Shown: positions 25,092-38,216 of the stretch, in pieces
Layout of the letters: each line of letters starts with the position of its first letter
Numbering within the stretch: position 1 is the first letter of the stretch
NCBI GenBank assembly: GCA_944321565.1
Contig: CALULT010000001.1
Location: 60,512-124,511 of the forward strand
Length of the DNA stretch: 64,000 bases
Direction: 5' to 3'
From: an uncultured Paraprevotella sp.
GTDB taxonomy: Bacteria > Bacteroidota > Bacteroidia > Bacteroidales > Bacteroidaceae
Notes under the pieces: generated by a model
Told to the model about the DNA's origin: nothing
Seen by the model: the letters and a program-made list of their open reading frames with translations, nothing else
Databases searched by the model: none
Position numbers and translations under genes: made by a program

Positions 25092-25784
25092 TTATGCATC
25101 GCGGCTGCCTTTTTCTTTGTCTTGTGCCAGGAAGCCGGGGGCATCTTTGGCCAATTGGATGATGTAAACGATGAAAAGAAGCAGGGCGACGACGGCGCAG
25201 GCGATGTCGAACACGTTCAGGCTGGAACCGCACACCTGGATGCGGATGTCCTGCAGGGGGGTGTACATGTAAACGATGTTGAGCAGAATGAGCAACAGGC
25301 GGAACTCCGTGGGACCCATGCCCCCGTAGGTCAGGCGGAACTCGCCTTTCAGGATGGTCAGGATGTAGGTATAGACCGAGAGGCACAGATAGCCGGAAAG
25401 GGCGAACAAGGCCACGTCCATGCGGAAAATGGGCGAAAGGCCGGCTCCTATGAAAATCATGGCCGTGGTCACGGCATCCAGCGTGTGGTCGATGAAGAAG
25501 CCGAAGACGGGACGTTCCTCGTGGCGCACCCGCGCGAGGGTGCCGTCCAGGCTGTCGCCATACCAGTGGAGCACCAGTCCGAACGAGGCCAGCCACAGGT
25601 AATTGAGGTTGGCGTTGGACAAATATCCGCCTAGCATGTAGAGCACGGCTCCGAATACGCCGATGCCGGTCATGATGTCCGAGTTCATCCAAGCGGGCTG
25701 TTTCCCGGCCAGCCACATCAAAACTTTCTTTTCTGCGTTGTTGAGGATTGAAGTCTGAATCCTTTTCGAATTTTCTTTTCCCAT
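25092..25784 (-). CDS. CDP-alcohol phosphatidyltransferase family protein
   Basis: 230 residues with about six membrane helices. The family signature D-G-x2-A-R-x8-G-x3-D-x3-D is present as SLDGTLARVRHEERPVFGFFIDHTLDA, written here in parts: DGTLARVRHEE then GFFIDHTLDA. These enzymes join an alcohol (glycerol phosphate, inositol, serine, choline or similar) to CDP-activated diacylglycerol. Which alcohol is used cannot be told from the sequence. It is the last gene of the long acyl-chain cluster (43 bp after the DUF5686 gene), which suggests it places a head group on a lipid made by that cluster. Confidence 0.88.
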   Translation of the reverse strand: MGKENSKRIQTSILNNAEKKVLMWLAGKQPAWMNSDIMTGIGVFGAVLYMLGGYLSNANLNYLWLASFGLVLHWYGDSLDGTLARVRHEERPVFGFFIDHTLDAVTTAMIFIGAGLSPIFRMDVALFALSGYLCLSVYTYILTILKGEFRLTYGGMGPTEFRLLLILLNIVYMYTPLQDIRIQVCGSSLNVFDIACAVVALLLFIVYIIQLAKDAPGFLAQDKEKGSRDA

Positions 25785-25827
25785 GTGATTCGGTTTACTT
25801 ATATATACTAGATGTATCTCATTCCTT

Positions 25828-28389
25828 TTAGAACGAAAGCGACATGGTCATCCGCACACCCCGCTGCTGGATGCCGGGATTGTCGCGGTAGGTCATCCGC
25901 CACACGTAGTCGATGCGCAGGAACTTGAAGATATTCTCAATGCCCACGCTGGCTTCCATGTAAGGGGTGCGTCCCATGGTGCGGGTGCCGGCGGGGAAGC
26001 GGAACAGTCCTTCGGATGGGTGCTTCATGGGATTGTTCTTGTCCGTCAGATGCCCCCACAGCCCGCGGAAGCAGAACACTTCGCGCCATTTGAGTTTCCG
26101 GATGAGCGGGAGGCGGTTGAGCAGGTTGCCGTTCATGTAATAAGTGATGTCCCACGACGCGTATTCGTCGTTGATGAACTCCAAGGCGTTCATGTTGGTG
26201 TAGGATTCCTTTTGGATGGTGTAGGTCAGGTTGGCGTTGGGCAGGAGCAGGAGCGGGTAGGGGACTTTGCTCCACACCTTTCCGGCCTTGGCAATGACAT
26301 CAAGGTAGCCGAAAGCGGAGAACCAGAAACGTTTCTGCAGCCCGACTTCCGTACGCTGGTAATCATAGTCCGACCCGAGGAAATCTTTTTTCGCCATGAC
26401 GTGGTTGGCGTTGACAATCCAAGCATCGAACGTGATGGGGACGCGCAGGTTGCGTGTCTGGTAGAACTTTTCTTTGTATGCATAGCGGATGCCTACTTCC
26501 AGCTGGGTCATGTCGTAATGTCCGACGGGACGTGCCGCGCCGTCGGGGGCAAAACGTTCGAACACGGCGTATGGGGTGGCGTATTCGCGGCGGTTGCGCA
26601 CGATGGCGTTGTAGGACAGTCCGTTGTAGTGCTCGCGGGTGTAGGTCAGTTCCGTCTGCCGCAGGTAGGAGATGTTCCGGTCTTTTTTGCGGCGGATCAT
26701 CAGCATCATGTTGTCCTTGCTGGTGTACATGTAGTTCTGCCCCAGCTTGTTGATGTCGTACATGTATTCGAAGCGGAGCGAGTGCACGGGGAATTCCTTG
26801 CGGAACTCCTTGCGGTCGTTGAACGAATATTCCGCCAGCGCGTCGTATTTCATTTTCCGGTCTTTCACGCCGTAGGCCACATAGCCATCGAACGACCAGC
26901 GGCGGCTGAGTGCCGTGGTGGTGGCTCCGCCGACGCGGAAGCGCATGCCTTCCAGCGTGTTGTGGTTGACGATGGAATTGACGGGGCCGAAGTCGAACTT
27001 GCTGAGTTCCCGGTTGCGGTGGGTGGGCACGTAGCCCGCCACGATGCTGGAGAAGATTTCCTTGCCCCAACGATAGGCTCGGACAGAGTTCAGCCGTTCC
27101 ATCAGTTTTTCCGTTGAGTTGGGGTTGCGGCGGACGGCTTCCGCCGGACGGTGTTCCTCCCAAAAGTCTTCCGTTTGGCGGTAGGCATCGTCCAACGTGA
27201 CGGATGCGGGGGCTTGCCGGAACACTTGGGCTTCCTCGGGCGCGGGTACTTCGAACGAATGGCGGGTATAGATGTTCAGGCGGCGGGCATACAAGCCTTT
27301 GCTGTTTTCCGTGAGCTTGAAGTTGACCTGTATGTCGTCTTTCACGGGCAGGCGGGTGCCGTCCGCCGTGCGCGTGAACTCCTGTTCGATGGCCATCCGC
27401 GAGACGAAGTTCAGGTTGATTTTCCGCGGTACGCTGAGCACGGCTTTTTGGACAAAATAGGTGGAGTCGAGCGTGACGTACAGATGGCCGGTGAAGCCGA
27501 AAGTCTCCGAGTTGAAGGGCACGAAAGAAAGATTCGCGCACTGCTTTCCGCCGACAGTGAGCGTATCGAGCAGGTAATATTTGTAGTAGCTGGGGCCGAT
27601 GGTGGAAAGCGGGCTGACAAAACGTTGCAGGAACAGCGGGATGTTGTTTTGGAAGATGTTTACCTCGCGGAACACTTCGCCCAGGAACTGGTGTACGCCG
27701 TCGCTGGAGAATATCTCGTCGATGCCGGAAGACTTGTATCCTTTCACGACACGTTTTTCCGATTGGGGGGACTTCCGGAAATACACGGTCTCCATTTTCT
27801 CCTTTTCCGATACGGGAAGGACGGTGGTGCCGGCATCCAGCGTATCGACAAATTCCTGCAGGAAGTCGAAGCGGCCTTTCTTGCCGTCAGCCTTGGGCTT
27901 GAAAGTATAATCGTTTTTGGCGAAGAGTATCTTTTCGTAGTGGTCGTAACTGTAGAAGTCGTGGGCTTTCGGGTCGTTGGCATCGCGCGACTCGATGACC
28001 CGGCGCACGAACTCCACAGCCGGGTTGTCCCGCCTGCGATACCTTTCCCGCTTAGGTTTCACGGTGACTTCGTCCAGCGCAATGTCGGCATCGGCCATCG
28101 GGATGTCCAGGCTGATGCGCCGCCCTTGTGGGGAAAGGTTGATTTCACGCGTGTGATAACCCATATATGAAATCAGCAAAGTCCCTTCCCGGTTGGGGAC
28201 GGAAAGGGAGAAGCGGCCGTTGATGTCGGTGGCGGTCTTGACATTGGAGTCTTCCCATATCACTGCGGCGTATGGCAAGCCTTCCCCCGTGAGGGAATCC
28301 TTCACAATGCCTTCCACTCGTGTCCGCTGTGCTTGTGCGGCGCATACGGAAAACCAAAGAACCAACCAAAGCATCAAAGTTTTTTTCAT
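25828..28389 (-). CDS. DUF5686 / carboxypeptidase-regulatory-like outer-membrane protein
   Basis: 853 residues from MKKTLMLWLVLWF; an upstream in-frame Met adds 15 unrelated residues and was rejected. Signal peptide ends at CAAQAQ. Residues ~25-105 are a carboxypeptidase-regulatory-like domain (TRVEGIVKDSLTGEGLPYAAVIW), as found at the start of SusC proteins. The remainder is the DUF5686 region with many alternating beta strands, Y-rich turns and a terminal aromatic residue (RMTMSLSF), i.e. a beta barrel in the outer membrane, related to BamA/TamA-type surface proteins. It sits in the acyl-chain operon between the flippase-like gene and the CDP-alcohol transferase. Confidence 0.88.
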   Translation of the reverse strand: MKKTLMLWLVLWFSVCAAQAQRTRVEGIVKDSLTGEGLPYAAVIWEDSNVKTATDINGRFSLSVPNREGTLLISYMGYHTREINLSPQGRRISLDIPMADADIALDEVTVKPKRERYRRRDNPAVEFVRRVIESRDANDPKAHDFYSYDHYEKILFAKNDYTFKPKADGKKGRFDFLQEFVDTLDAGTTVLPVSEKEKMETVYFRKSPQSEKRVVKGYKSSGIDEIFSSDGVHQFLGEVFREVNIFQNNIPLFLQRFVSPLSTIGPSYYKYYLLDTLTVGGKQCANLSFVPFNSETFGFTGHLYVTLDSTYFVQKAVLSVPRKINLNFVSRMAIEQEFTRTADGTRLPVKDDIQVNFKLTENSKGLYARRLNIYTRHSFEVPAPEEAQVFRQAPASVTLDDAYRQTEDFWEEHRPAEAVRRNPNSTEKLMERLNSVRAYRWGKEIFSSIVAGYVPTHRNRELSKFDFGPVNSIVNHNTLEGMRFRVGGATTTALSRRWSFDGYVAYGVKDRKMKYDALAEYSFNDRKEFRKEFPVHSLRFEYMYDINKLGQNYMYTSKDNMMLMIRRKKDRNISYLRQTELTYTREHYNGLSYNAIVRNRREYATPYAVFERFAPDGAARPVGHYDMTQLEVGIRYAYKEKFYQTRNLRVPITFDAWIVNANHVMAKKDFLGSDYDYQRTEVGLQKRFWFSAFGYLDVIAKAGKVWSKVPYPLLLLPNANLTYTIQKESYTNMNALEFINDEYASWDITYYMNGNLLNRLPLIRKLKWREVFCFRGLWGHLTDKNNPMKHPSEGLFRFPAGTRTMGRTPYMEASVGIENIFKFLRIDYVWRMTYRDNPGIQQRGVRMTMSLSF

Positions 28390-28452
28390 TCTGCACTCGT
28401 TTTTTACGGTTTTATGCTTGTTTGTGTCTTCCAAGGTCGTTTCGAACGAGGT

Positions 28453-29490
28453 TTAATGTGGCTTGTTGTCTTTTCCCACTTTCATGAGCAAGATGCCGGC
28501 CGCAGCCCAAAACAACTCGCGGACGCGGCTGATGATGCTGATGAACATGGCCGTGCCGCCTGTCATGCCCATTTGTGCCACGGAAATGGCGAATCCGCCT
28601 TCCCGTCCGCCCAGTTGCAGGGGGATGAATCCGAGCAGGTTGGCGAACAGCGAAGTGAAGGCAAGGATGAGGAACGCATGAAGGAACGTCAGCAGGTAGC
28701 CCGCTGCGCCGCCGCCCCCGTCGATGCCGAAGAGGAGCAGCATGAAGAAAATTTCAAAACTTTGACAGAACCGGCCGACATATTCCAAGCAGAAGCTGCC
28801 GAAGAAGGAACGTTTGTTCTGTCCTTGCAGTTCCGTGATTTGCCGGTCTATCTTTTCCAAATCTTCTTCGTGGGCTGCAATGAAACGTGCCCCCCATTTT
28901 TTCAGGCCGGGCAAATGCCCCAGCCAATGGATGAATCTTACCGCCATTCCGTTCTTGTATCCTTTCATGAACAGGTAAATTCCTGCCCAGCAGAACAGGC
29001 CGATGAACACCAGCGCCACCACCGTACCGGTTTCCAACGGGACTTTGCCCGCAGCGGCCAGTGCCAGATACGTCACAATGCCGGTCGCCCAGAACCAGAA
29101 ATGGCAGAATATGTGCATCATGGCGAACAGTACGACAGAAGAAGTGGCGCGCCGCACGTCAATGTACTTGGACAATTCCATGATGCGGTAAGGCTCGCCG
29201 CCCAGCAGTCCGATTGGAGTGGCATAGTTGAGGGCGAATCCGGAGATGGTCAGTTTCAGCAGGCGGAAGAAACTGATGGGGCACGGCCCGCTCCCGAGGA
29301 TAATGACGCGCCAAGCCCATGCATTCATGAGGTAGAGCACGATCCATAATCCCAAGATGGCCGCCAGCCAATAGCCTGCCCGGGTGATGTATGCCCATAG
29401 TTCCGCAAAGCTCACTTCGAACGTACATAGCATGACGATGACTGCCGCCAGGCCGATGGCGAAAAGCAGGTTGTTGATTCGTTTTCTCAT
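28453..29490 (-). CDS. Flippase-like membrane protein (UPF0104/LPG-synthase TM family)
   Basis: 345 residues from MRKRINNLLFAIG; start overlaps the upstream thioesterase stop by 4 bp (ATGA). About eight membrane helices, with the family motifs LNAWAWRVI, NYATPIGLLGGEPYRI (the GxxGGEP-like hallmark of MprF/AglD-type flippases) and LGGREGGFAISVAQ. These proteins move lipids or lipid-linked sugars across the inner membrane; the lysyl-transferase domain of MprF is absent. In this operon it could translocate the product of the acyl assembly genes. Confidence 0.87.
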   Translation of the reverse strand: MRKRINNLLFAIGLAAVIVMLCTFEVSFAELWAYITRAGYWLAAILGLWIVLYLMNAWAWRVIILGSGPCPISFFRLLKLTISGFALNYATPIGLLGGEPYRIMELSKYIDVRRATSSVVLFAMMHIFCHFWFWATGIVTYLALAAAGKVPLETGTVVALVFIGLFCWAGIYLFMKGYKNGMAVRFIHWLGHLPGLKKWGARFIAAHEEDLEKIDRQITELQGQNKRSFFGSFCLEYVGRFCQSFEIFFMLLLFGIDGGGGAAGYLLTFLHAFLILAFTSLFANLLGFIPLQLGGREGGFAISVAQMGMTGGTAMFISIISRVRELFWAAAGILLMKVGKDNKPH

Positions 29491-29927
29491 GGTTGCGGTG
29501 CGTCTCCCAAATGTTTGTCCTGCCATTCCTTGAAGAAGTCAGGTATGTCCACCAGCAGGATGCCTTCCGTGTCCACGAACAACTGCGTGGTGTTCGCCTT
29601 GGCACACAACATGTTGTCCCGTTCGCGGTAGATTTCATAGAGGAAGTCTATTCGTGCGCCGGGATGGTAAACGTAACGTGTGTGTATCCTTGCCACGTCG
29701 TCCAGCGTGAGCGGGGCCAGGAAGCGGATGCGGAGGTCATAGATGGCCGCATAGATGCCCGCCCGGCTCATGTCGGCGTACCCGATGCCGGGATAATGCC
29801 GCCCGAACGATTCGCGCCCGTCTTCCAGATAGGTGACGAATGAGCCGTGCCAAGCGCGTTGCATGGAGTCAATCTCGCTGAAACGCACCGTCATCCGGCA
29901 GATGTCTTCCAATTCAGTCTTTTTCAT
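29487..29927 (-). CDS. Acyl-CoA/ACP thioesterase, 4HBT hotdog family
   Basis: 146 residues. The 4-hydroxybenzoyl-CoA-thioesterase fold is indicated by VRFSEIDSMQRAWHGSFVTY (the catalytic Asp follows SEI) and LRIRFLAPLTLDDVARIHTRY. It hydrolyses acyl thioesters, here likely releasing or editing chains carried by the nearby acyl carrier protein. It is 11 bp downstream of the reductase gene and overlaps the flippase-like gene, so it belongs to the same operon. Confidence 0.88.
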   Translation of the reverse strand: MKKTELEDICRMTVRFSEIDSMQRAWHGSFVTYLEDGRESFGRHYPGIGYADMSRAGIYAAIYDLRIRFLAPLTLDDVARIHTRYVYHPGARIDFLYEIYRERDNMLCAKANTTQLFVDTEGILLVDIPDFFKEWQDKHLGDAPQP

Positions 29928-29938
29928 GTGCGTTTTTC

Positions 29939-30667
29939 CTATGTATGAAGCCCGCCGTTGATGGAAACCACCTCTCCGGTGATGTATCCGGCTTGGGGCG
30001 AGGCGAGGAATCCCACGAGTTCGGCCACTTCCTCGGGACGGCCGAAGCGCAGGAGCGGAATGATGTTCTTCAGGGAAGCTTCGTCCAAGTCGCCGGTCAT
30101 GTCGGTCTCGATGAACCCGGGTGCCACGGCATTGACGGTCACCTGCTTGCGGGCCACTTCGAGGGCCAATGCTTTCGTGGCGGCGATGAGTCCGCCTTTG
30201 GCTGCGGAGTAATTGGTTTGTCCCGGTTGTCCTTTGAGCCCGCTGACGCTGGCCATGTTGATGATGCGTCCGTATTTGCGTACCAGCATGGGTTGCAGTA
30301 CGGCTTGTGTCACATTGTAGAATCCTGTGAGGGTGACTTCCAACACGCGATGCCAGTCCTTGTCGGGCATGAAAGCCAGTACGCTGTCGCTACGGATGCC
30401 CGCGTTGTTGACCAACACTTCGATGTATTCGCCCGGATGGGCTTTTTCCCATTCGTCGATGGCATTGCATACTTGTTCGTGCCGACAGACGTCGAATGGC
30501 AGGATTTCGCCATCTTGTCCCGCTTCGCGCACCAGTTCCAAGGTCTTTTGGGCTTCTTCTGCACGGCTTGCGTAATTGATGAGGACGTGGTAGCCCATTC
30601 GGGCCAGTTTGATGCAGACGGCGCGGCCTATCCCGCGGCTGCCTCCTGTGACTAATGCATATTTCAT
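29939..30667 (-). CDS. fabG: 3-oxoacyl-ACP reductase, FabG type
   Basis: 242 residues, typical SDR length. Cofactor motif GGSRGIGRAV, NNAG (VLVNNAGIRSD), catalytic Ser-Tyr-Lys (NMASVSGLKGQPGQTNYSAAKGG), and the C-terminal EVAELVGFLASPQAGYITGEVVSINGG. It reduces the beta-keto group of ACP-bound chains with NADPH. The ketosynthase, ACP and dehydratases upstream make a dedicated role more likely than a housekeeping one, so the symbol denotes the family rather than the essential fabG. Confidence 0.92.
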   Translation of the reverse strand: MKYALVTGGSRGIGRAVCIKLARMGYHVLINYASRAEEAQKTLELVREAGQDGEILPFDVCRHEQVCNAIDEWEKAHPGEYIEVLVNNAGIRSDSVLAFMPDKDWHRVLEVTLTGFYNVTQAVLQPMLVRKYGRIINMASVSGLKGQPGQTNYSAAKGGLIAATKALALEVARKQVTVNAVAPGFIETDMTGDLDEASLKNIIPLLRFGRPEEVAELVGFLASPQAGYITGEVVSINGGLHT

Positions 30668-30695
30668 GATTGTTCCTTTTTATGTGCCTGTTTTT

Positions 30696-32177
30696 TTAGT
30701 TCCCGCCCTTGCAGTTCCCGTTGAGCATTTCCCATACGGCATCTTTTCCCAATATTCCGGCGCAGGTCTGGAAGGCGGTCATCGTGACCCCGTGCAATCC
30801 ATGGAGCCCCACGTTCTGTCCCGTGAGGAAGAGGTTGGGGATGGGGGTGCGCGGTGAGAGGAAGGTCTGCAACGCCGCGCGGCAATCCTTGCGCAGGCCG
30901 TAGGCACTGCCTTCAGGGGTGAGCGTGTAGCGATTCCATGTCAGCGGTGTGCTGGTGTAAGCGGTTTCCGCTTCGCCCAGGCCTGGCAGGATGCTTTCTG
31001 CCAAGGCGATGCATTCGCCGGCTGTTTGTTTTTTCATTTCTTCGTAGGAATTGTCCCGGCGGTCTTTCCATGCCTTGCAGTATTCCCAATTCATCGGGGT
31101 GAGCAAGTCCACCTGCCGGGTATATCCACTATCGTCTTCCGGAACACGGCAACTGGCCAGTACGCCGCTCACGGGACGGTTGTCCAAGTGGAATGTCCAC
31201 ACGTCGGGATTCCGGTAGATGTAGTGGTTGCGGTTGAAGTAGCGGAGCTTGCCTGGCGCGAAACGGAGTGAGACGGTGAACATGCCGAATGTCTGTGGCA
31301 GGCATTGGATGCGTTCGCGATAGAGTGGCTTTATCCGTTGGCCGTTCCGCACCATGCGGCAAGTTTGTGCCGGATGGATGTCGCTGACGAACAACCGGCT
31401 TTCGTAGGTTTCCCCATTGGTGCATACGGCTTGTGTCAGTTTCCCGTCCTTTTCCACCAGCTCCTGCACTTCGCTTTGGCAAACTATCTCCCCGCCTTGT
31501 GCACGGATGCCTTGAACCAAGGAGTCGGTGATTAACGAGCCACTGCCTTTCAGCCGCCAGCTGCTTTCGATGAAACAACCGTTTCCGTGCAGGAACGCGA
31601 ACAAAGGAAGAGATTCCGGCCTGAGTTCCATCTTGAGCGAAGCCCCGCTCAGCACGTTGATGAGCAACGGGTCTTTGAAGTGCTCATAGAGATACTTGTA
31701 GGCCGGGGTTTCCATGAGTTCCGTAATCAAGTCCATGTCGGATGATTGGGGGCTGAATGCTGCGAATTGCAGTCTCGCGGCCCGTTTCAGTAAGCCGGCA
31801 TACCGGTGCAGGGCTGCCCGTTCGGCGGGAAAGGCTTCGGCGAGGCGGTTGGCGAAAGCATCATGGCCTTGTGCGAACGGGAAGGAGTGACGGTTGATGG
31901 TCACGCAGTCGAAGTTGTCGGCATCCAGCCGTCGCCAAGGGAGTTCCAGCAGTCCTAGATGGCGGAAGGCGGCATGCAACGATTGCCCTTCGTCCAACCC
32001 GCCGGCATAGTGGAAGCCGGTGTCGAACTCCATGCCTTTCCGGTGATAACTTTGCAGGCATCCGCCCGGTTGCCGTCCTTGTTCCAATATGAGAACACGT
32101 TGTCCGGCACGTGAAAGGATGTAGCCGCACTCCAGTCCGCCCAGTCCGCCACCGATGATGAGCACGTCGTATTTCAT
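30696..32177 (-). CDS. CrtI/retinol-saturase-like FAD oxidoreductase
   Basis: 493 residues. FAD-binding motif at the start (VLIIGGGLGGLECGYILSRAG, here split: VLIIGGGLGG and ECGYILSRAG), then GGCLQSYHRKGMEFDTGFHYAG, and the C-terminal GLHGLHGVTMTAF that closes the FAD site. It belongs with phytoene desaturases, carotenoid isomerases and retinol saturases, which add, remove or isomerise double bonds in conjugated chains. Its start overlaps the stop of the hotdog gene upstream by 4 bp, tying it to chain synthesis. A plausible role is to desaturate or isomerise an ACP-bound or released polyene chain; carotenoid genes are otherwise absent from this window. Confidence 0.88.
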   Translation of the reverse strand: MKYDVLIIGGGLGGLECGYILSRAGQRVLILEQGRQPGGCLQSYHRKGMEFDTGFHYAGGLDEGQSLHAAFRHLGLLELPWRRLDADNFDCVTINRHSFPFAQGHDAFANRLAEAFPAERAALHRYAGLLKRAARLQFAAFSPQSSDMDLITELMETPAYKYLYEHFKDPLLINVLSGASLKMELRPESLPLFAFLHGNGCFIESSWRLKGSGSLITDSLVQGIRAQGGEIVCQSEVQELVEKDGKLTQAVCTNGETYESRLFVSDIHPAQTCRMVRNGQRIKPLYRERIQCLPQTFGMFTVSLRFAPGKLRYFNRNHYIYRNPDVWTFHLDNRPVSGVLASCRVPEDDSGYTRQVDLLTPMNWEYCKAWKDRRDNSYEEMKKQTAGECIALAESILPGLGEAETAYTSTPLTWNRYTLTPEGSAYGLRKDCRAALQTFLSPRTPIPNLFLTGQNVGLHGLHGVTMTAFQTCAGILGKDAVWEMLNGNCKGGN

Positions 32178-32557
32178 TCTGTTTCAGGTTTGTCTTTCTC
32201 CATCTCGCCTTGGTACTCCATGTAAGTCCGTTCGGCATCGGCCATGCGGGCTTGCACGTGAACCCCGTTGTCCGCAGGCGACAAACGGATGTCCACCCGG
32301 AGTTCCGGGCAAGTGGCAGGCGTGGCCACGGCGGTCAGGCGGCACAGGCGGATGGCGCGGATGCGCAAACGGCAGCCCGTCAGCCGTTCCGTAAGTTCCT
32401 TCACTGTCTGGATGTGGCACACTCCCGGGCATACCGGGTTGTCCGGGAAGTGTCCCCGATAGACCTCGCAATCCGGGCAGAGGGCGATGTGGAACCGTCC
32501 GCTTTGTCCGTCCGTGTGCATGCTGATGAGCTCATAATAGTGGTTTTCCAGTCGCAT
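32174..32557 (-). CDS. Hotdog dehydratase-like protein with His but no Glu (ApeI-like)
   Basis: 127 residues. A FabZ/FabA-type hotdog fold is indicated by YRGHFPDNPVCPGVCHIQ: the catalytic His of FabZ is kept (His36), whereas the Glu found 14 residues later in FabZ is Gln50. The N-terminal segment before it is short and the C-terminus is highly charged. Proteins of this shape act as dehydratases in aryl-polyene clusters. It lies 12 bp downstream of the other hotdog gene, suggesting the two products form a complex. Alternative: a non-catalytic partner or thioesterase. Confidence 0.8.
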   Translation of the reverse strand: MRLENHYYELISMHTDGQSGRFHIALCPDCEVYRGHFPDNPVCPGVCHIQTVKELTERLTGCRLRIRAIRLCRLTAVATPATCPELRVDIRLSPADNGVHVQARMADAERTYMEYQGEMEKDKPETE

Positions 32558-32569
32558 GGTCGTTTGGGT

Positions 32570-32992
32570 TTATTCCGTTGGGAGATAAATCTTCATTTGG
32601 GTGTCGGCCACGAGGGCATTTCCCGCTCGGGTTTCGCCCCTCAGCAAAGTCACTCCGCCCGCTTCCGCCCCGAGCGTGATGGTGGTGTGCAGCGTTTCGC
32701 CCTCCCGTGGCAGTCTGTGGCATTTGAACTTCCTGATTTCCCCGATGTAGCCGACAGGCGGCGAGGCCGCCCCGGCTGCGACGGCATGGCGTCCGGCCAC
32801 GGCGGAAGCGGATTGTGCGATGTGTTCCAGGATGCCGGCCTCTTCCATCCGCCCGTCTTCGTCAAGGAAATAGTTTCCGTGGCGGATGGTGAGACAGGTG
32901 CGTCCGCCTTCGAGCCCCACGTCCAGCAGCGCATCCACCATCAGCATGGGAGCGCGTTGCGGGACCAGTGTCCGTATGTCTTCGTGAATCAT
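32570..32992 (-). CDS. Hotdog dehydratase-like protein with Glu but no His (ApeP-like)
   Basis: 140 residues. LVPQRAPMLMVDALLDV matches the FabZ/ApeP opening. The segment FLDEDGRMEEAGILEHIAQSAS aligns with the FabZ active-site helix: Glu56 is present (ILEHIAQ) but the position of the catalytic His is Phe42, because the GHFPG loop is missing. The start overlaps the ACP stop by 4 bp. The ApeP group has this DADGR-like pattern. It probably dehydrates beta-hydroxyacyl-ACP, alone or together with the next gene product. Confidence 0.82.
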   Translation of the reverse strand: MIHEDIRTLVPQRAPMLMVDALLDVGLEGGRTCLTIRHGNYFLDEDGRMEEAGILEHIAQSASAVAGRHAVAAGAASPPVGYIGEIRKFKCHRLPREGETLHTTITLGAEAGGVTLLRGETRAGNALVADTQMKIYLPTE

Positions 32993-33237
32993 GCCTGTGG
33001 CAGATGGGATTCGATGTAATCATAAAGGTTGTTGAAGGTCTGGATGCCGCGCAGGTCGCTGGCGGGTATCTTCACTTTATAGGTCTGTTGCACGAGGGCG
33101 ACCAAGTCCACTAGGCTCAGGCTGTCCAGATTGAGCGTTTCCTTCACGTTAGCATCCGGGGTGAAGTTTGTGGCGTTAACTTCGAATTCTTCAGCAAGCA
33201 GGCTGTTCACTTGTTTTACGATTTCTTCGCGTGTCAT
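32989..33237 (-). CDS. Acyl carrier protein
   Basis: 82 residues, acidic, four-helix ACP. The phosphopantetheine Ser is Ser39 in LNLDSLSLVDLV. The start MTREEIVKQVNSLLAEEFEV and the end FNNLYDYIESHL are typical. It carries the growing chain for the nearby ketosynthase, reductase and dehydratases. It is 26 bp downstream of the ketosynthase gene and is distinct from the primary-metabolism ACP, which is usually next to fabF. Confidence 0.93.
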   Translation of the reverse strand: MTREEIVKQVNSLLAEEFEVNATNFTPDANVKETLNLDSLSLVDLVALVQQTYKVKIPASDLRGIQTFNNLYDYIESHLPQA

Positions 33238-33263
33238 AATGGGTTTGTTTTTGTCGTTACAGT

Positions 33264-34484
33264 TTATAGATTTTTGATGATGAGCGTGGAATTGGTACCT
33301 CCGAACCCGAAGGAGTTGGAGAGGAACATGTCGAAATGCGTTTCCCGCCGCTCGGGCAGCACGTTGATGCAGGCCGTGTCATCGTCCGGGTGTTCGAAAT
33401 TGAGGCTGCCGGCGATGAATCCGTTTTTCATCATCAGCGTGGAATAGATGATTTCGCTGGCACCGGCCATCCACATCTCATGTCCTGTCTGGCTTTTCGT
33501 GGACGTGACGGGCGTTTGCAGGCTGCCGAAGAAGCGGGCGATGGCTTGTGCTTCGCGGGCATCGCCGATGCGGGTCGAAGTGGCATGTGCGTTGATGTAG
33601 CCAATTTCTTCGGGACAGATGCCGCCGTGTTGCAGGCAGAGTTCCAATGAGCGGGCGGGGCCGTCGATGTCCGGGGTGGAGATGTGGTTGCCGTTGCCGG
33701 AAAATCCCCAACTGATGATCTCGGCCAAAATGGGTGCTCCGCGCTTCACGGCGTGTTCGTAGCTCTCTACCACGAGCGTGGCCGCCCCGCCGCCCGGCAC
33801 AAGCCCGTCGCGGTCGCGGTCGAACGGGCGGCAGGCTTTCGCGGGGGCATCTTCGCGGACGGAGAATGACTGGATGCCGTCGAAGGCCGCCACGCTATAC
33901 ATGTTGGCTTCTTGTGCCCCGCCGCACACGATGCAGTCCTGCAGCCCGTTCCGTATCAGGAGAAAGGAAAGTCCGATGGCGTGTGAACCGGAGGCGCAGG
34001 CCGCAGAGGCCGTCAGGTTGATGCCCCTCAGCCTGAACAGGCAGGCCAGGTTCATCGTCACGGTGGAGTTCATGGATTGGAAAATGGCTCCGCTCCCGCA
34101 GGCCGCCGTGTCGTGGTATTCCCGGAATTTGTCCAAGGTACGCATGGTGGCTTCTGCCACGGAGTCGTTGCCATAGATGAGGCCTATCTCATGGCTGGCG
34201 ATATAGTCGGTGTCCAGCCGGGCGTTCTCCAACGCCTGCCGGGTGGCCATGTAGGCATACCCGGCTTCCTCGGGTATGAACTGCCGGGGACCCCGTGGGA
34301 TGAAGGGCTTCAGGTCGGGGCGGGGGATGTCGGCGCTGAGGGCGGAGCGGAATCCGGCTTCCTTGCGCTCCGGGCTATACACGATGCCGCTTCGTCCGGC
34401 GTAGAGGGAGTCGCGCACCTCGTCCAGCGTCGTGCCCAGGCACGACCAGATGCCCATGCCTGTGATTACTACTCTTTTTTCCAT
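33264..34484 (-). CDS. Beta-ketoacyl-ACP synthase, FabF-like
   Basis: 406 residues from MEKRVVITGMGIWSC; a longer in-frame start overlaps the acyltransferase and was rejected. The catalytic set is complete: Cys163 (ASAACASGSHA), His300 (NAHATST) and His335 (KSQTGHEMW). The usual KSxxGHxxGAAGA motif reads KSQTGHEMWMAGASE, a change seen in specialised ketosynthases. It condenses malonyl-ACP with an acyl chain. No chain-length-factor partner gene and no second KS lie nearby. It overlaps the acyltransferase gene by 16 bp. Confidence 0.92.
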   Translation of the reverse strand: MEKRVVITGMGIWSCLGTTLDEVRDSLYAGRSGIVYSPERKEAGFRSALSADIPRPDLKPFIPRGPRQFIPEEAGYAYMATRQALENARLDTDYIASHEIGLIYGNDSVAEATMRTLDKFREYHDTAACGSGAIFQSMNSTVTMNLACLFRLRGINLTASAACASGSHAIGLSFLLIRNGLQDCIVCGGAQEANMYSVAAFDGIQSFSVREDAPAKACRPFDRDRDGLVPGGGAATLVVESYEHAVKRGAPILAEIISWGFSGNGNHISTPDIDGPARSLELCLQHGGICPEEIGYINAHATSTRIGDAREAQAIARFFGSLQTPVTSTKSQTGHEMWMAGASEIIYSTLMMKNGFIAGSLNFEHPDDDTACINVLPERRETHFDMFLSNSFGFGGTNSTLIIKNL

Positions 34485-35638
34485 TGTATGTCTTTGTTGT
34501 CTGTATGGTATAAATCTTTCGTGTAACACCGCCTCCTTTTGACGAATCTCGGACTCAGCGGTTTCCATTGCGACAGTTCCCGGACGTTGCTCTCCAGTTG
34601 GGGGCCGGTTTCGGCCCAGCGGATGCCCAATCGGTTATAGACCGGAATCAGGTTTTCGAAAAACAGCGCGTTGACTCCCAAGCCTTGGTAGTCGGGATGG
34701 ACGGCCACGAGCAACATTTCAGCCTTGTCTTCCCGTTGGCAAGTCAGGGCGCGGAGCAGGTGAAACCATCCGAAAGGGAACAGCCGTCCTTGGCTTTTTT
34801 GCAGGGCAAGGGCAAGGCTGCGCATCGTGATGGCCACCGCGACCAGTCCGCCTTTCTCGTCTTCCACCACGGAAAGCATCCTGGTGTCCAACAGGGGGAC
34901 GTAACGGTTGAGATAAAAGTCGATTTGCCTCTCGGAGAGTTCCGCATACCCGAAGATGGGGGCGTAGGCGAGGTTGATCAGCTGGAATATTTTCTGTCCG
35001 TACCCGCTGTAAATCTCCTTTTTGGTGAGCCCCCGTGTGTGCAGTCCGAACATTTCGCGGGCCAGGCGGGCCACGCGGGCATATTTTTCCGGAACTTCCT
35101 GCGGGATGTTGATGTGTGCCTGCAGCCAATCTACTTCCTTTTCATAGCCCAACCGTTCCAAATGCACAGGATAGTAAGGCGGATTGTAGAGTGCGGTCAT
35201 GGAACCGTTCATGTCGAAATCCTCCACGAGCATGCCTTCCTTGTCGAGGTCGGAAAATCCCATGGGGCCTTGTATGCGGGTCATGCCCTGCCTGCGGCCC
35301 CACTCCTCCACGGCTTCCAGCAGCGCGCGCGACACTTCGTGGTCATCGGTGAATTCAAGGAAGCCGAACCGCACGTTGCGGGTGTGCCATTGCTCGTTGG
35401 CCCGGTGGTTGACGATGCCGACGATGCGTCCTGCGGGCTCTCCGTCGGCGTAAGCGATGAATGGTTGGATGTCGCTGCTTTCCAGTTCCGCGTTTTTTTG
35501 AGGGGAGAACGTGTCCCGCACGTCTGATTCCATGTCGGGGACGTAGCAGGGATAATGTGCGTAAATCCGTCGGGGGAGCCTTACGAAGTCCCTCAACTCG
35601 CTTTTCGTGGATACTGTTTTTACTGTCACATTCTTCAT
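34469..35638 (-). CDS. GNAT-superfamily acyltransferase, first gene of the acyl-chain operon
   Basis: 389 residues from the ATG giving MKNVTVKTVSTK; a Met 12 nt upstream would be in the promoter and was rejected. The C-terminal half has the GNAT core (AEMLLVAVHPDYQGLGVNALFFENLIPVYNRLG); the N-terminal half has RFGFLEFTDDHEVSRALLEAVEEWGRRQG and IQGPMGFSDLDKEGMLVEDF, the marks of a large Bacteroidetes N-acyltransferase-like family of unknown substrate. The donor could be acyl-CoA or the operon's acyl-ACP. The promoter at 35648-35678 places the RNA start about 3 nt before this ATG. Confidence 0.85.
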   Translation of the reverse strand: MKNVTVKTVSTKSELRDFVRLPRRIYAHYPCYVPDMESDVRDTFSPQKNAELESSDIQPFIAYADGEPAGRIVGIVNHRANEQWHTRNVRFGFLEFTDDHEVSRALLEAVEEWGRRQGMTRIQGPMGFSDLDKEGMLVEDFDMNGSMTALYNPPYYPVHLERLGYEKEVDWLQAHINIPQEVPEKYARVARLAREMFGLHTRGLTKKEIYSGYGQKIFQLINLAYAPIFGYAELSERQIDFYLNRYVPLLDTRMLSVVEDEKGGLVAVAITMRSLALALQKSQGRLFPFGWFHLLRALTCQREDKAEMLLVAVHPDYQGLGVNALFFENLIPVYNRLGIRWAETGPQLESNVRELSQWKPLSPRFVKRRRCYTKDLYHTDNKDIQWKKE

Positions 35639-35647
35639 AAGCAGGCG

Positions 35648-35678
35648 CAAAAATACGCCGAAACTTATTTATGGCAAA
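35648..35678 (-). promoter_or_regulatory. Consensus promoter of the acyl-chain operon
   Basis: On the minus strand TTTG (35675-35678), 19-bp spacer, TATTTTTG (35648-35655). Start of RNA is expected near 35641, leaving almost no leader before the ATG at 35638. Confidence 0.7.
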
Positions 35679-35852: not shown

Positions 35853-38216
35853 TTATTGCTGCAGGTATTCGTGCATGCTGCTGGCCGCGCGCCGCCCGTC
35901 GCCCATGGCGAGGATGACCGTGGCGCCTCCGCGCACGATGTCGCCGCCGGCGAAGATGCAGGGGATGTTGGTCTGCATGCCTTCGTTGACCACGATGGTG
36001 TTCTTGCGGCCCAGTTCCAATCCTTGGATGGACGTGGGCACGATGGGATTGGGCGACACGCCCACGGCCACGATGGCCATGTCGATGTCCAGTGTTTCTG
36101 TGGCGCCGGGGATGGGTTCGGGGCTGCGGCGTCCGCTGGCATCCGGTTCGCCCAGCTGCATTTTCTGCAGCACAACTTGTTTCACGGCACCTTTTTCGTC
36201 GGCGATGTATTCAATCGGGTTGTGGAGCGTGAGGAACTCGATGCCTTCCTCCTTGGCATGCTTCACTTCCTCGATGCGGGCCGGCATTTCTGCTTCCGAA
36301 CGGCGATAGACGATGACCACGCGCTCCGCGCCGAGGCGTTTGGCCGTGCGGCAAGAGTCCATGGCCGTGTTGCCGCCGCCGACCACCATCACCCGGCGTC
36401 CGATGTGTATCGGCGTGTCAGTGTCGGGGTTGGAGGCATCCATCAGGTTGACGCGCGTCAGGTATTCGTTGCTTGACATGATGTTGATGCTGTTTTCTCC
36501 GGGGATGCCCATGAAGTTGGGAAGTCCCGCGCCGGAGCCCACGAAGATGCCCTTGAAACCTTTGTCTTCCAGTTCTTTCACACTGATGGTCTTGCCCACG
36601 AGGCAATCCTTTTCGAATTTCACGCCCATCTTCTCCAGGTTCTGGATTTCCACATCGACAATCTTGTTGGGCAGGCGGAACTCGGGAATGCCATATTTCA
36701 ACACGCCCCCAATCTCATGCAGGGCCTCGAAGACCGTCACGTCGTAGCCCAGCTTGGCCATGTCGCCGGCAAATGAAAGTCCGGCGGGGCCTGAGCCGAT
36801 GGCGGCCACCTTGATGCCGTTGGCCGGGGCGCATTCGGGCACGGAACTGTGCCCGCTTTCGCGTTCGAAGTCGGCGGCGAAGCGTTCCAGATAGCCGATG
36901 GCCACGGCCGGTTCGTTCATCTTCAGGTGTATGCACCGGCTTTCGCATTGTTTCTCTTGCGGGCAGACGCGGCCGCACACTGCGGGCAGGGCCGAAGTGC
37001 TTTTCAGCACACGGGCGGCGTTGAGGAACTCACCCCGTTCGATGTTTTTGATGAAGGAAGGAATGTTGATGCTCACGGGGCAACCCTGCATGCAAGTGGG
37101 GTTGGCGCAGTCCAGGCAACGTTTGGCTTCCGTCATGGCCTGTTCCGCGCTGAGGCCGATGTTCACCTCTTCCGTGCGGGTCGTGGCGCGATAGACGGGG
37201 TCAAGCTCCGGCATGATGACGCGCGGGATGGCCGTGCGTTCCTTGGGCTTCATGGCCTTGCGGATTTCCTGCCGCCACGGTGCGTTGCGGTCGGTCAGTT
37301 CGCTGAGCGGGGTGGTGGTGTCCATGTCCGAAGCATCGGGTGCGGGCGTTGGTGTCTTGTCAAGTTGGCAGGTGGTGCCCGCCGGTTCCTGGTGTCCGTG
37401 TTGTTCCCAACGTTCAAACTCCTCTATTTCTTCTTTCTTGAACGCGCTGCCGCGTTTCAGCATTTCGTCGAAATCCACTTGATGGCCGTCGAACTCCGGG
37501 CCGTCCACACAGACGAAGCGCGTCTTTCCGCCCACGGTGATGCGGCATGCGCCGCACATGCCCGTGCCATCGACCATGATGGTGTTCAGCGACACATCCG
37601 TGGGGATGTCGTATTTCTTGGTGAGCAGGCAGCAGAACTTCATCATGATGGCGGGGCCGATGGCGAAACACTTGTCCACCTTCTCGCGCAGGATGACGCT
37701 TTCGATGCCGGCGGTCACGAGCCCTTTTTGTCCGTAGCTGCCGTCGTCGGTCATGATAATGACTTCGTCGGAGTGTTTGCGCACCTCGTCTTCGAGGATA
37801 ATCAGCTCCTTGGTGCGTCCGGCCAGGACGGAAATCACGCGGTTGCCCGCGGCTTTCAGGGCTTCGATGATGGGAAGCATGGGCGCCACGCCCACGCCGC
37901 CTCCGGCGCAGACCACCGTGCCGAAGTTTTCAATATGGGTGGCTTTGCCCAGCGGGCCTACCACGTCTGTGATGTAGTCGCCTTCGCTGAGGTTGCACAG
38001 CTTGGTGGAAGAAAGTCCCACTTCCTGCACCACCAATGTGATAGTGCCTTTCACAGGGTCGGCTCCGGCGATGGTCAACGGCATGCGTTCGCCTTTTTCA
38101 CCTACGCGCACGATGACGAAGTGTCCGGCCTTGCGGGCCTTGGCAATCAAGGGGGCTTCTATTTCGAACTTGAAGACCTTTTCTGAAAACTGGCACTTGC
38201 TGATAATCTTGTTCAT
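35853..38216 (-). CDS. Fused NfnA/NfnB-type (SudBA-like) oxidoreductase
   Basis: 787 residues joining two usually separate subunits. Residues 1-~265 are a dihydroorotate-dehydrogenase-B-like ferredoxin reductase: FAD region, NAD motif and a [2Fe-2S] site (MCGACRITVGG, FVCVDGPEF). Residues ~330-787 are a GltD-like NADPH:acceptor domain with CLDCANPTCMQGCPVSI and CGRVCPQEKQCESRC for iron-sulfur clusters, GSGPAGLSFAGDMAKLG for FAD and VVGGGNTAMDSCRTAKRLGAE for NADPH. Related heterodimers carry out electron bifurcation between NADH, NADPH and ferredoxin or act on polysulfide. Gene names in databases read bifunctional dihydroorotate dehydrogenase B/glutamate synthase subunit. It follows serS by 43 bp. 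Confidence 0.92.
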   Translation of the reverse strand: MNKIISKCQFSEKVFKFEIEAPLIAKARKAGHFVIVRVGEKGERMPLTIAGADPVKGTITLVVQEVGLSSTKLCNLSEGDYITDVVGPLGKATHIENFGTVVCAGGGVGVAPMLPIIEALKAAGNRVISVLAGRTKELIILEDEVRKHSDEVIIMTDDGSYGQKGLVTAGIESVILREKVDKCFAIGPAIMMKFCCLLTKKYDIPTDVSLNTIMVDGTGMCGACRITVGGKTRFVCVDGPEFDGHQVDFDEMLKRGSAFKKEEIEEFERWEQHGHQEPAGTTCQLDKTPTPAPDASDMDTTTPLSELTDRNAPWRQEIRKAMKPKERTAIPRVIMPELDPVYRATTRTEEVNIGLSAEQAMTEAKRCLDCANPTCMQGCPVSINIPSFIKNIERGEFLNAARVLKSTSALPAVCGRVCPQEKQCESRCIHLKMNEPAVAIGYLERFAADFERESGHSSVPECAPANGIKVAAIGSGPAGLSFAGDMAKLGYDVTVFEALHEIGGVLKYGIPEFRLPNKIVDVEIQNLEKMGVKFEKDCLVGKTISVKELEDKGFKGIFVGSGAGLPNFMGIPGENSINIMSSNEYLTRVNLMDASNPDTDTPIHIGRRVMVVGGGNTAMDSCRTAKRLGAERVVIVYRRSEAEMPARIEEVKHAKEEGIEFLTLHNPIEYIADEKGAVKQVVLQKMQLGEPDASGRRSPEPIPGATETLDIDMAIVAVGVSPNPIVPTSIQGLELGRKNTIVVNEGMQTNIPCIFAGGDIVRGGATVILAMGDGRRAASSMHEYLQQ

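What the first reader, a model, noticed from the sequence alone, without database searches (positions are those of the whole stretch)
25092..35678. Dedicated acyl-chain assembly operon coupled to lipid transfer and export genes
Eleven minus-strand genes run from one consensus promoter (35648-35678): GNAT acyltransferase, ketosynthase, ACP, two hotdog dehydratases, CrtI-like flavoenzyme, FabG reductase, thioesterase, flippase-like protein, DUF5686 barrel, CDP-alcohol transferase. The first eight overlap (4-16 bp) or are spaced at 11-28 bp; the last three follow with 4-bp overlap, 63 bp and 43 bp. It looks like an aryl-polyene/flexirubin system reduced to its core: aromatic ammonia-lyase, acyl-activating ligase, chain-length factor and MMPL transporter are absent from the neighbourhood. 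A CrtI-type enzyme acting on an ACP-made polyene, then N- or O-acyl transfer and head-group attachment, would give an undescribed membrane lipid or pigment. Product is inference.
Basis: partly seen in the sequence, partly recalled or inferred. Interest (0 to 1): 0.78.

Follow-up and report, generated by a model that had tools for sequence, protein, structure and literature searches.

The report
Aryl-free flexirubin-like lipid operon
A gut-type Bacteroidales genome carries a stripped-down relative of the flexirubin pigment gene cluster that lacks the genes for the aromatic starter and for export but keeps a chain-building enzyme paired with a carotenoid-desaturase-like flavoenzyme, so it probably makes a small unsaturated acyl chain for a membrane lipid whose structure is not yet known.

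Summary
Observation confirmed: eleven minus-strand genes (25092-35638), the stated spacings and an exact Bacteroides-type promoter at 35648-35678. Best partners in the E. coli aryl-polyene cluster are KS=ApeR, ACP=ApeF, hotdog 1=ApeP, hotdog 2=ApeI, FabG=ApeQ (over the NCBIfam FlxB flexirubin cut-off), TE=ApeK. The KS is 58-62% identical to the KS beside an FlxB-like reductase in five lyase-bearing flexirubin-type clusters; the CrtI-like protein has the place of FlxV. The own genome (99.4% complete) shows no aromatic ammonia-lyase, FlxY equivalog, LolA2 or operon-type MMPL. Gene order is conserved in rumen and gut Bacteroidales. MMPL and LolA are both present in 22 and both absent in 17 of 39 GNAT-type loci; on the KS tree MMPL changes at least five times. 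The steadiest pair is KS plus CrtI-like enzyme (66 of 80 KS-selected loci; 8 of the other 14 run off contigs). The two hotdogs carry complementary halves of the FabZ site. Best reading: an aryl-free, chain-length-factor-free flexirubin/APE-type synthase making a short unsaturated acyl chain, passed on by a tandem-GNAT protein. Flippase-like and CDP-alcohol genes are loosely attached. New variant of a known kind; product unproven.

The parts
35648..35678 (-). Bacteroides-type promoter TTTG-N19-TATTTTTG
   Evidence: exact consensus match, 5 in window vs 0.78 expected; consensus recalled
34469..35638 (-). tandem-GNAT acyltransferase (ATG start inferred from relatives; longest ORF starts TTG 35650)
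   Evidence: PF00583 31.8 bits; AlphaFold model pLDDT 84.9, tandem-GNAT fold; in the KS run in 39 of 97 loci examined
33264..34484 (-). beta-ketoacyl synthase, ApeR/FabB-like and FlxC-type (inner ATG; longest ORF from 34568)
   Evidence: ApeR 36% E 9e-68, ApeO weaker at E 3e-30; 58-62% to KS beside FlxB-like genes in five lyase-bearing clusters; Cys-His-His-Lys invariant
32989..33237 (-). acyl carrier protein with DSL serine
   Evidence: PF00550; ApeF best
32570..32992 (-). hotdog 1, ApeP-type dehydratase half (Glu kept, no HFP His)
   Evidence: Glu 53 of 53, His 0 of 53; hhalign ApeP 96.6%
32174..32557 (-). hotdog 2, ApeI-type dehydratase half (GHFP His kept, Gln at the Glu place)
   Evidence: His 40 of 40; hhalign ApeI 96.0%
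30696..32177 (-). CrtI/CrtD-like FAD oxidoreductase (place of FlxV)
   Evidence: TIGR02733 113.9 bits, below its cut-off; AlphaFold pLDDT 93.0, best PDB match 4rep gamma-carotenoid desaturase TM 0.76
29939..30667 (-). FabG-type reductase FlxB
   Evidence: NF053542 FlxB 398.7 bits, cut-off 340
29487..29927 (-). 4HBT thioesterase, ApeK-like
   Evidence: PF13279; ApeK E 3e-11
28453..29490 (-). LPG_synthase_TM flippase-like membrane protein (loosely attached)
   Evidence: PF03706; seen in 4 of 39 GNAT-type operons; own genome has a 50% paralogue on C4
25828..28389 (-). DUF5686 protein with CarboxypepD_reg domain (outer-membrane place inferred)
   Evidence: PF18939 146 bits; in the run in 25 of 39 GNAT-type operons
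25092..25784 (-). CDP-alcohol phosphotransferase-like protein (loosely attached)
   Evidence: weak NCBIfam hits; motif complete; this type in 1 of 39 GNAT-type operons (the window itself), another CDP-alcohol type in 7 of 39

Best explanation
An aryl-free, chain-length-factor-free relative of the flexirubin/aryl-polyene synthase. Inferred mechanism: a FabB/ApeR-like (presumably homodimeric) KS elongates a non-aromatic starter (acetyl or a fatty acyl group from primary metabolism) on the dedicated ACP; FlxB reduces; hotdog 1 and hotdog 2 together form one dehydratase site (Glu from one, His from the other); with no enoyl reductase in the operon the double bonds remain, giving a short conjugated polyenoyl or polyunsaturated chain. 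The CrtI-like flavoenzyme (FlxV place) then oxidises or isomerises that chain on or near the ACP. TE releases it or edits errors, and the tandem-GNAT protein moves the acyl group to an amine or other acceptor, so the product stays in the envelope. The MMPL plus LolA export pair found in close relatives is missing here. Shown by sequence: gene set, order, homology, catalytic residues, absences. Inferred: chain length, starter, CrtI chemistry, acceptor, site of the product.
For: FlxB equivalog over cut-off. Best partners in the characterised E. coli APE cluster for six proteins, with hotdog pairing specific: HD1-ApeP 96.6%, HD2-ApeI 96.0%, cross pairs 0.10% and 0.24% (L146). Same KS family beside a lyase and an FlxB-like reductase in five same-class genomes of other families and in one of the own family. 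Complementary half-sites: HD1 Glu 53 of 53, HFP His 0 of 53; HD2 His 40 of 40; ApeI/ApeP reported as heterodimeric dehydratases with a single active site (PMC8041823, passage). ApeR reported to make mostly shorter polyenes of up to four double bonds, and alterochromide named as lacking KS-CLF (PMC8358021, passages). In the own genome no PF00221 lyase, no FlxY equivalog, no second KS except a FabF-like one, no LolA2, no operon-type MMPL. No PF00221 protein in 27 of 36 genomes with GNAT-type operons. CrtI-like gene in the same run in 66 of 80 KS-selected loci.
Against: No product is known. HD2 has both His and Glu in 11 of 40 sequences (my count), and Prevotella loci exist with hotdog 1 followed directly by MMPL and no room for hotdog 2 (e.g. 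L074), so the pair is not obligatory within the operon. Some operons lack hotdogs and FabG altogether (L081-L083, L085, L090). 6 of 80 KS-selected loci lack a CrtI-like gene with room to spare. The KS residue at the aryl-stacking Tyr place is Ile in 85 of 85 relatives, but that set includes loci beside FlxY (L125, L134), so it does not prove a non-aryl starter. The enoyl reductase of primary metabolism could act on the chain. 9 of 36 operon-bearing genomes do have a PF00221 lyase (HutH or FlxA not resolved). The own genome has 10 MMPL/RND Pfam matches, one of which might serve export. The CLF search of the own genome had no positive control.
Confidence: 0.6

Rival explanations
1. It still makes an aryl polyene: the aromatic starter comes from elsewhere (for example a phenylacetyl- or hydroxybenzoyl-CoA/ACP made by general metabolism), and the product is a short flexirubin-like pigment.
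For: KS, ACP, KR, hotdogs and TE are homologous to aryl-polyene enzymes. Two FlxY-related, below-cut-off ligase genes exist in the genome.
Against: No PF00221 lyase, no FlxY equivalog, no ligase in the operon. The one of the two ligase genes that I looked at (C9:437-1669, L193) is on another contig and followed by a small ACT-domain-like ORF (that name is my reading); the other was not looked at. 27 of 36 operon-bearing genomes lack the lyase.
Confidence: 0.2
2. An alternative unsaturated or otherwise modified fatty acid pathway serving ordinary phospholipids or N-acyl lipids, without a conjugated polyene: the KS is FabB-like and the CrtI-like enzyme is an anaerobic desaturase or isomerase, comparable to the FabF plus phytoene-dehydrogenase-like gene sets proposed for ladderanes and C31 polyunsaturated hydrocarbons.
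For: KS best matches are FabB/KAS I. Minimal operons consist of GNAT-KS-ACP-CrtI-DUF5686 (L081-L083, L085, L090) or KS-CrtI-FabG. PMC2649909 (passages) proposes that phytoene-dehydrogenase-like enzymes add double bonds in FASII loci of Kuenenia and Desulfotalea.
Against: FlxB equivalog, ApeP/ApeI pairing and ApeQ/ApeK homology tie it to polyene makers; no radical SAM family was hit among the operon proteins scanned.
Confidence: 0.17
3. A decaying remnant: after loss of starter, CLF and exporter genes the operon is on its way out.
For: MMPL and LolA are missing together in 17 of 39 GNAT-type loci, with at least five changes of MMPL on the tree.
Against: All eleven frames are open, catalytic residues are kept in KS, HD1 and HD2, the promoter is exact, and similar exporter-less sets recur in L226 (same family, KS 84%), L061, L062 and L093.
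Confidence: 0.03

Closest known systems
Flexirubin (flx) clusters, Chitinophaga pinensis / Flavobacterium johnsoniae
   Same: FlxB reductase, FlxC-type KS, ACP, hotdogs, TE and the CrtI-like gene at the FlxV place; MMPL and LolA in relatives of the operon
   Different: no FlxA ammonia-lyase, FlxY equivalog or KS-CLF found in the genome; no FlxW-like AAT gene in the operon; a GNAT in front; no operon-type exporter; DarA/DarB not tested.
Aryl polyene (APE) cluster of E. coli CFT073
   Same: counterparts of ApeR, ApeF, ApeP, ApeI, ApeQ, ApeK
   Different: no counterpart of ApeO/ApeC, ApeH, ApeM, ApeL, ApeJ, ApeB, ApeD in the operon; has a CrtI-like gene, which the CFT073 gene table does not show
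FASII clusters with phytoene-dehydrogenase-like genes (ladderane candidates in Kuenenia, PUHC in Desulfotalea; PMC2649909, passages)
   Same: FabF/B-type KS with a CrtI-like flavoenzyme in one locus
   Different: no radical SAM family hit; FlxB and ApeI/ApeP-type hotdogs instead

Membership tests
flexirubin (flx) cluster | FlxB SDR reductase | tested here: met
   NF053542 398.7 bits vs cut-off 340
flexirubin (flx) cluster | FlxC-type KS next to FlxB | tested here: met
   58-62% identity to such KS, one tree; the name FlxC is inferred from the gene order lyase-FlxB-KS, not from a fetched C. pinensis record
flexirubin (flx) cluster | FlxA aromatic ammonia-lyase | tested here: not met
   PF00221 0 matches in own genome; family rings in 5 of 14 control genomes
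flexirubin (flx) cluster | FlxY acyl ligase | tested here: not met
   NF053551: 220.4 and 183.2 bits vs 520
flexirubin (flx) cluster | KS-CLF pair | tested here: not met
   only the operon KS and one FabF-like KS at E<=0.001; no CLF match, but without a positive control
flexirubin (flx) cluster | DarA/DarB dialkylresorcinol genes | not tested
   no search made
flexirubin (flx) cluster | LolA2 / MMPL export | tested here: not met
   NF053544 0 matches; operon-type MMPL only 22% over 114 aa; other MMPL/RND family proteins exist
aryl polyene (APE) cluster | ApeI/ApeP heterodimeric dehydratase | tested here: met
   by sequence only; complex formation not testable
aryl polyene (APE) cluster | ApeO-ApeC KS-CLF and ApeH ligase | tested here: not met
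   KS is ApeR-like
aryl polyene (APE) cluster | aryl-polyene product | not testable with these tools
   needs extracts
CrtI/CrtD carotenoid desaturases | fold and FAD site | tested here: met
   TM 0.76 to 4rep; GxGxxG motif
CrtI/CrtD carotenoid desaturases | curated family score | tested here: not met
   TIGR02733 113.9 of 549.7 bits; TIGR02734 55.6 of 238.1
ladderane/PUHC FASII loci | radical SAM enzymes in the locus | tested here: not met
   no such family among the operon proteins scanned

The most novel reading that the evidence does not exclude
The FlxC-type KS and the CrtI-like FlxV enzyme form a self-standing two-enzyme unit, older than or independent of aryl polyenes, that makes oxygen-independent conjugated or otherwise desaturated acyl-ACP; gut and rumen Bacteroidales attach this chain through a tandem-GNAT N-acyltransferase to give an undescribed class of membrane lipid.
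Probability: 0.2. Interest if true: 0.8.

Novelty: new variant of a known kind. Interest (0 to 1): 0.55.

Why it matters
Flexirubin-type clusters are known as pigment clusters with aromatic starters. Here a reduced, aryl-free form recurs in host-associated Bacteroidales, where annotation could pass it off as spare fatty acid genes or an incomplete aryl-polyene cluster. The steadiest gene pair (KS plus CrtI-like enzyme) points at the one flexirubin enzyme whose role is only suggested in the text I saw (FlxV, named as a possible beta-keto reductase in PMC3992019) and makes that role testable in an eight-gene system. If the product is a lipid of gut Bacteroides and Prevotella, it would be a new envelope component of common symbionts.

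Tried and rejected
Tried and rejected. (1) A generic sigma-70 promoter scan: no excess; the Bacteroides pattern was used instead. (2) The idea that the GNAT is the bacterial ceramide synthase: the two papers looked into (PMC11087976, passages; PMC11765627, passages) do not contain the term GNAT, a paper search for the ceramide synthase with GNAT or YghO gave nothing on it, phmmer against the PDB gave nothing useful (E 0.96), and the own paralogue (47%) lies by a topoisomerase-like gene (that name is my reading), so the idea was dropped. (3) The KS Tyr-to-Ile change as proof of a non-aryl starter: dropped because loci beside FlxY share it (the equivalence of E. coli ApeR Tyr136 with Tyr135 of PMC8358021 is my reading). 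(4) The idea that the CDP-alcohol and flippase-like genes are inositol-lipid genes (PMC9246714, passages): in Prevotella they travel with NTP-transferase-like and aminotransferase-like genes (names from my reading); of six genomes looked at, one has the unit next to the operon (L187) and five do not (L188-L192, against contig lengths and places); the window CDP-alcohol protein shows no real similarity to the 326-aa one. Not resolved. (5) Celluxanthene paper PMC12144888: none of the terms FAD, flavin, phytoene, desaturase, oxidoreductase.

Limits of counts. One search examined 97 loci: those 80 plus 17 that I picked (window, L041, L042, L045-L049, L223-L231); L043, L044, L050-L058 and L232 were left out; L223 and L224 are two pieces of one genome and L224 is anchored on another KS; L054 and L228 are one genome; the KS of L046 and L116 are identical, probably one genome twice. 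The tblastn cut-off of 1e-5 undercounts short or diverged proteins (ACP, HD1, HD2, TE, LolA), and loci that end soon after the operon make the counts for DUF5686, CDP-alcohol and flippase-like genes lower bounds. Genomes behind L-handles came without completeness values. HD2's 40 sequences include 4 from full clusters (L053, L054, L056, L058). The tree is a quick one (SH-aLRT only).
Full report
What is there. The promoter at 35678-35648 is an exact TTTG-N19-TATTTTTG (5 matches in 64 kb against 0.78 expected; the consensus is recalled). The start codon of the first gene is about 10 nt from it, and a gene of the same strand ends upstream at 35853. The same-strand run continues past the eleventh gene.

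What the proteins are. The FabG scores 398.7 bits against the NCBIfam flexirubin reductase FlxB (cut-off 340). I fetched the E. coli CFT073 aryl-polyene cluster and compared (the names ApeA-ApeR were laid on that record by order and product, partly from recall): KS best matches ApeR (36%, E 9e-68; ApeO second, E 3e-30), ACP ApeF, hotdog 1 ApeP, hotdog 2 ApeI, FabG ApeQ (46%), TE ApeK. The MMPL of a close relative (L041) matches ApeM (20%), and the LolA of a more distant one (L048) matches ApeL (23%). Profile comparison is specific: hotdog 1 with ApeP 96.6%, hotdog 2 with ApeI 96.0%, cross pairs 0.10% and 0.24%. Across relatives hotdog 1 keeps the FabZ glutamate in 53 of 53 and the HFP histidine in 0 of 53; hotdog 2 keeps the histidine in 40 of 40, with Glu in 11, Gln in 25 and other residues in 4 at the Glu place (my count; Gln in the window). 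In FabZ these two residues come from opposite subunits (recalled), and ApeI/ApeP is described as heterodimeric with a single active site (PMC8041823, passage). The two 'dehydratases' are thus probably two halves of one enzyme.

The flexirubin link. In a sample of 395 genomes of the phylum 33 carry this KS at E <= 1e-100. I mapped nine of these genomes (10 regions). Five, of three other families in the same class (unnamed; I take them for flavobacteria), have a lyase (BLAST to a PF00221 protein, 54-58%), an FlxB-like reductase, the KS (58-62%) and an ACP in one run (L223, L225, L229, L230, L231), as does L228 from the window's own family (KS 57%). L227 (own family) has FlxB-KS-ACP-...-KS-CLF without a lyase hit in its 20 kb; L232 has KS and ACP only; L226 (own family, KS 84%) is of the reduced type. 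L224, L225 and L231 also carry a CrtI-like gene (31-32%) followed by an AAT-like gene. L054, a full cluster of the same genome as L228 with a FlxY equivalog (720.5 bits), has MMPL-CrtI-AAT-FlxY in that order. PMC3992019 (part 1 of 5 of the text and a passage) lists flxA lyase, flxB or flxV as possible beta-keto reductases, flxP-flxU export including a predicted exporter, flxW ligase-like and flxY ligase; the CrtI-like gene therefore sits at the place of flxV. This is inference from order, since no C. pinensis record was fetched. The paper's main text does not contain FAD, desaturase, oxidoreductase or phytoene.

What is missing. The own genome (99.44% complete) has no PF00221 lyase (the family rings in 5 of 14 control genomes), no FlxY equivalog, no LolA2, one other KS only, FabF-like, no CLF match (without a positive control) and no operon-type MMPL, though it has 10 MMPL/RND Pfam matches in long frames. 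Among 36 genomes with GNAT-type operons, 27 have no PF00221 lyase and 9 do (HutH or FlxA not resolved).

Conservation. A KS-alignment scan returned 80 loci from record titles such as Bacteroides, Prevotella, Tannerella, Paludibacteraceae and unnamed Bacteroidales, many from rumen, other gut parts or faeces. In 97 loci the run holds a GNAT (39), a PlsC type (28, never with a GNAT) or neither (30). In the 39 GNAT-type loci: KS 39, ACP 39, CrtI 37 (the other two end at a contig end), HD1 27, HD2 13, FabG 23, TE 14, DUF5686 25, MMPL 22, LolA 22, CDP-alcohol 8 (7 of a second type), flippase-like 4, and lyase, FlxY and CLF 0. MMPL and LolA are both present in 22 and both absent in 17 (two of the 17, L075 and L094, are cut by contig ends). 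On a quick KS tree MMPL presence needs at least five changes among 37 loci. Of the 80 KS-selected loci 66 have a CrtI-like gene in the same run; of the 14 without, 8 stop within 0.5 kb of a contig end and 6 do not (L097, L102, L114, L128, L129, L136). Minimal forms are GNAT-KS-ACP-CrtI-DUF5686 (L081-L083, L085, L090) and KS-CrtI-FabG (L109, L115, L119, L123, L132, L135, L138); in six of these seven the CrtI-like protein is short, 317-393 aa, and lacks most or part of the middle region.

Structures. The CrtI-like model (pLDDT 93.0) is closest to 4rep gamma-carotenoid desaturase (TM 0.76/0.77), then 3ka7 and plant phytoene desaturase 5mog, with amine oxidases close behind. Its scores are far below the curated carotenoid cut-offs. 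The GNAT model (pLDDT 84.9) is a tandem GNAT (2wpw, 7q3a, 5kf1, 2c27; TM 0.5-0.6); acceptor unknown.

How it most likely works. A FabB/ApeR-like KS without a chain length factor, FlxB and the split dehydratase would make a short polyenoyl-ACP; ApeR is reported to make mostly shorter polyenes of up to four double bonds (PMC8358021, passages). No enoyl reductase lies in the operon. The CrtI-like enzyme, present even where hotdogs and FabG are absent, should act on the KS product or its derivative: oxidation or isomerisation is most likely by fold. TE and GNAT then release or transfer the chain. Retention in the membrane is inferred from the missing MMPL and LolA.

What argues against parts of this. 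Prevotella loci with hotdog 1 but no room for hotdog 2 (L074), HD2 proteins with both residues (11 of 40), lyase-bearing genomes (9 of 36), six KS loci without a CrtI-like gene, and the MMPL/RND proteins of the own genome are told above. CDP-alcohol and flippase-like genes are not steady members, so 'lipid transfer and export' in the finding's title is its weakest part.

Literature. In the library searched, no listed paper describes this reduced operon by title or abstract: flexirubin/gene cluster/aryl polyene (25 of 28 listed), flexirubin with dialkylresorcinol, Flavobacterium johnsoniae or Chitinophaga pinensis (20 of 73), aryl polyene/Bacteroidales/Prevotella/ketosynthase (6 of 6), flexirubin with phytoene desaturase, phytoene dehydrogenase or FlxV (12 of 96). 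LolA2/LolB2 genes of flexirubin loci are described in PMC11885536 (passages). Aryl-polyene clusters of gut Bacteroides are known (B. xylanisolvens, PMC12940132, passages).

Noticed in passing
loci L081, L082, L083, L085, L090: Operons cut down to GNAT-KS-ACP-CrtI-DUF5686, without hotdogs, reductase or thioesterase.
   Followed up: partly
loci L109, L115, L119, L123, L132, L138: KS-CrtI-FabG trios with a short CrtI-like protein (317-393 aa) lacking most or part of the middle region.
   Followed up: partly
genomes G101 (C13:35891-38848) and G185 (C4:336798-339770): Two CrtI-like units lie side by side in frames reported as 995-1005 aa, i.e. a possible fusion of two such flavoenzymes.
   Followed up: no
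L187 7052-10889; also L188, L189: Prevotella unit of CDP-alcohol phosphotransferase (326 aa), flippase-like protein, aminotransferase-like and NTP-transferase-like genes, near or away from the KS operon; head group unknown (the last two names are my reading).
   Followed up: partly
own genome C29:2796-3953: A 47% paralogue of the operon GNAT in front of a topoisomerase-like gene; role unknown.
   Followed up: no
window 40459, 46136, 58650, 63481: Four further exact TTTG-N18-24-TANNTTTG promoter-like sites.
   Followed up: no
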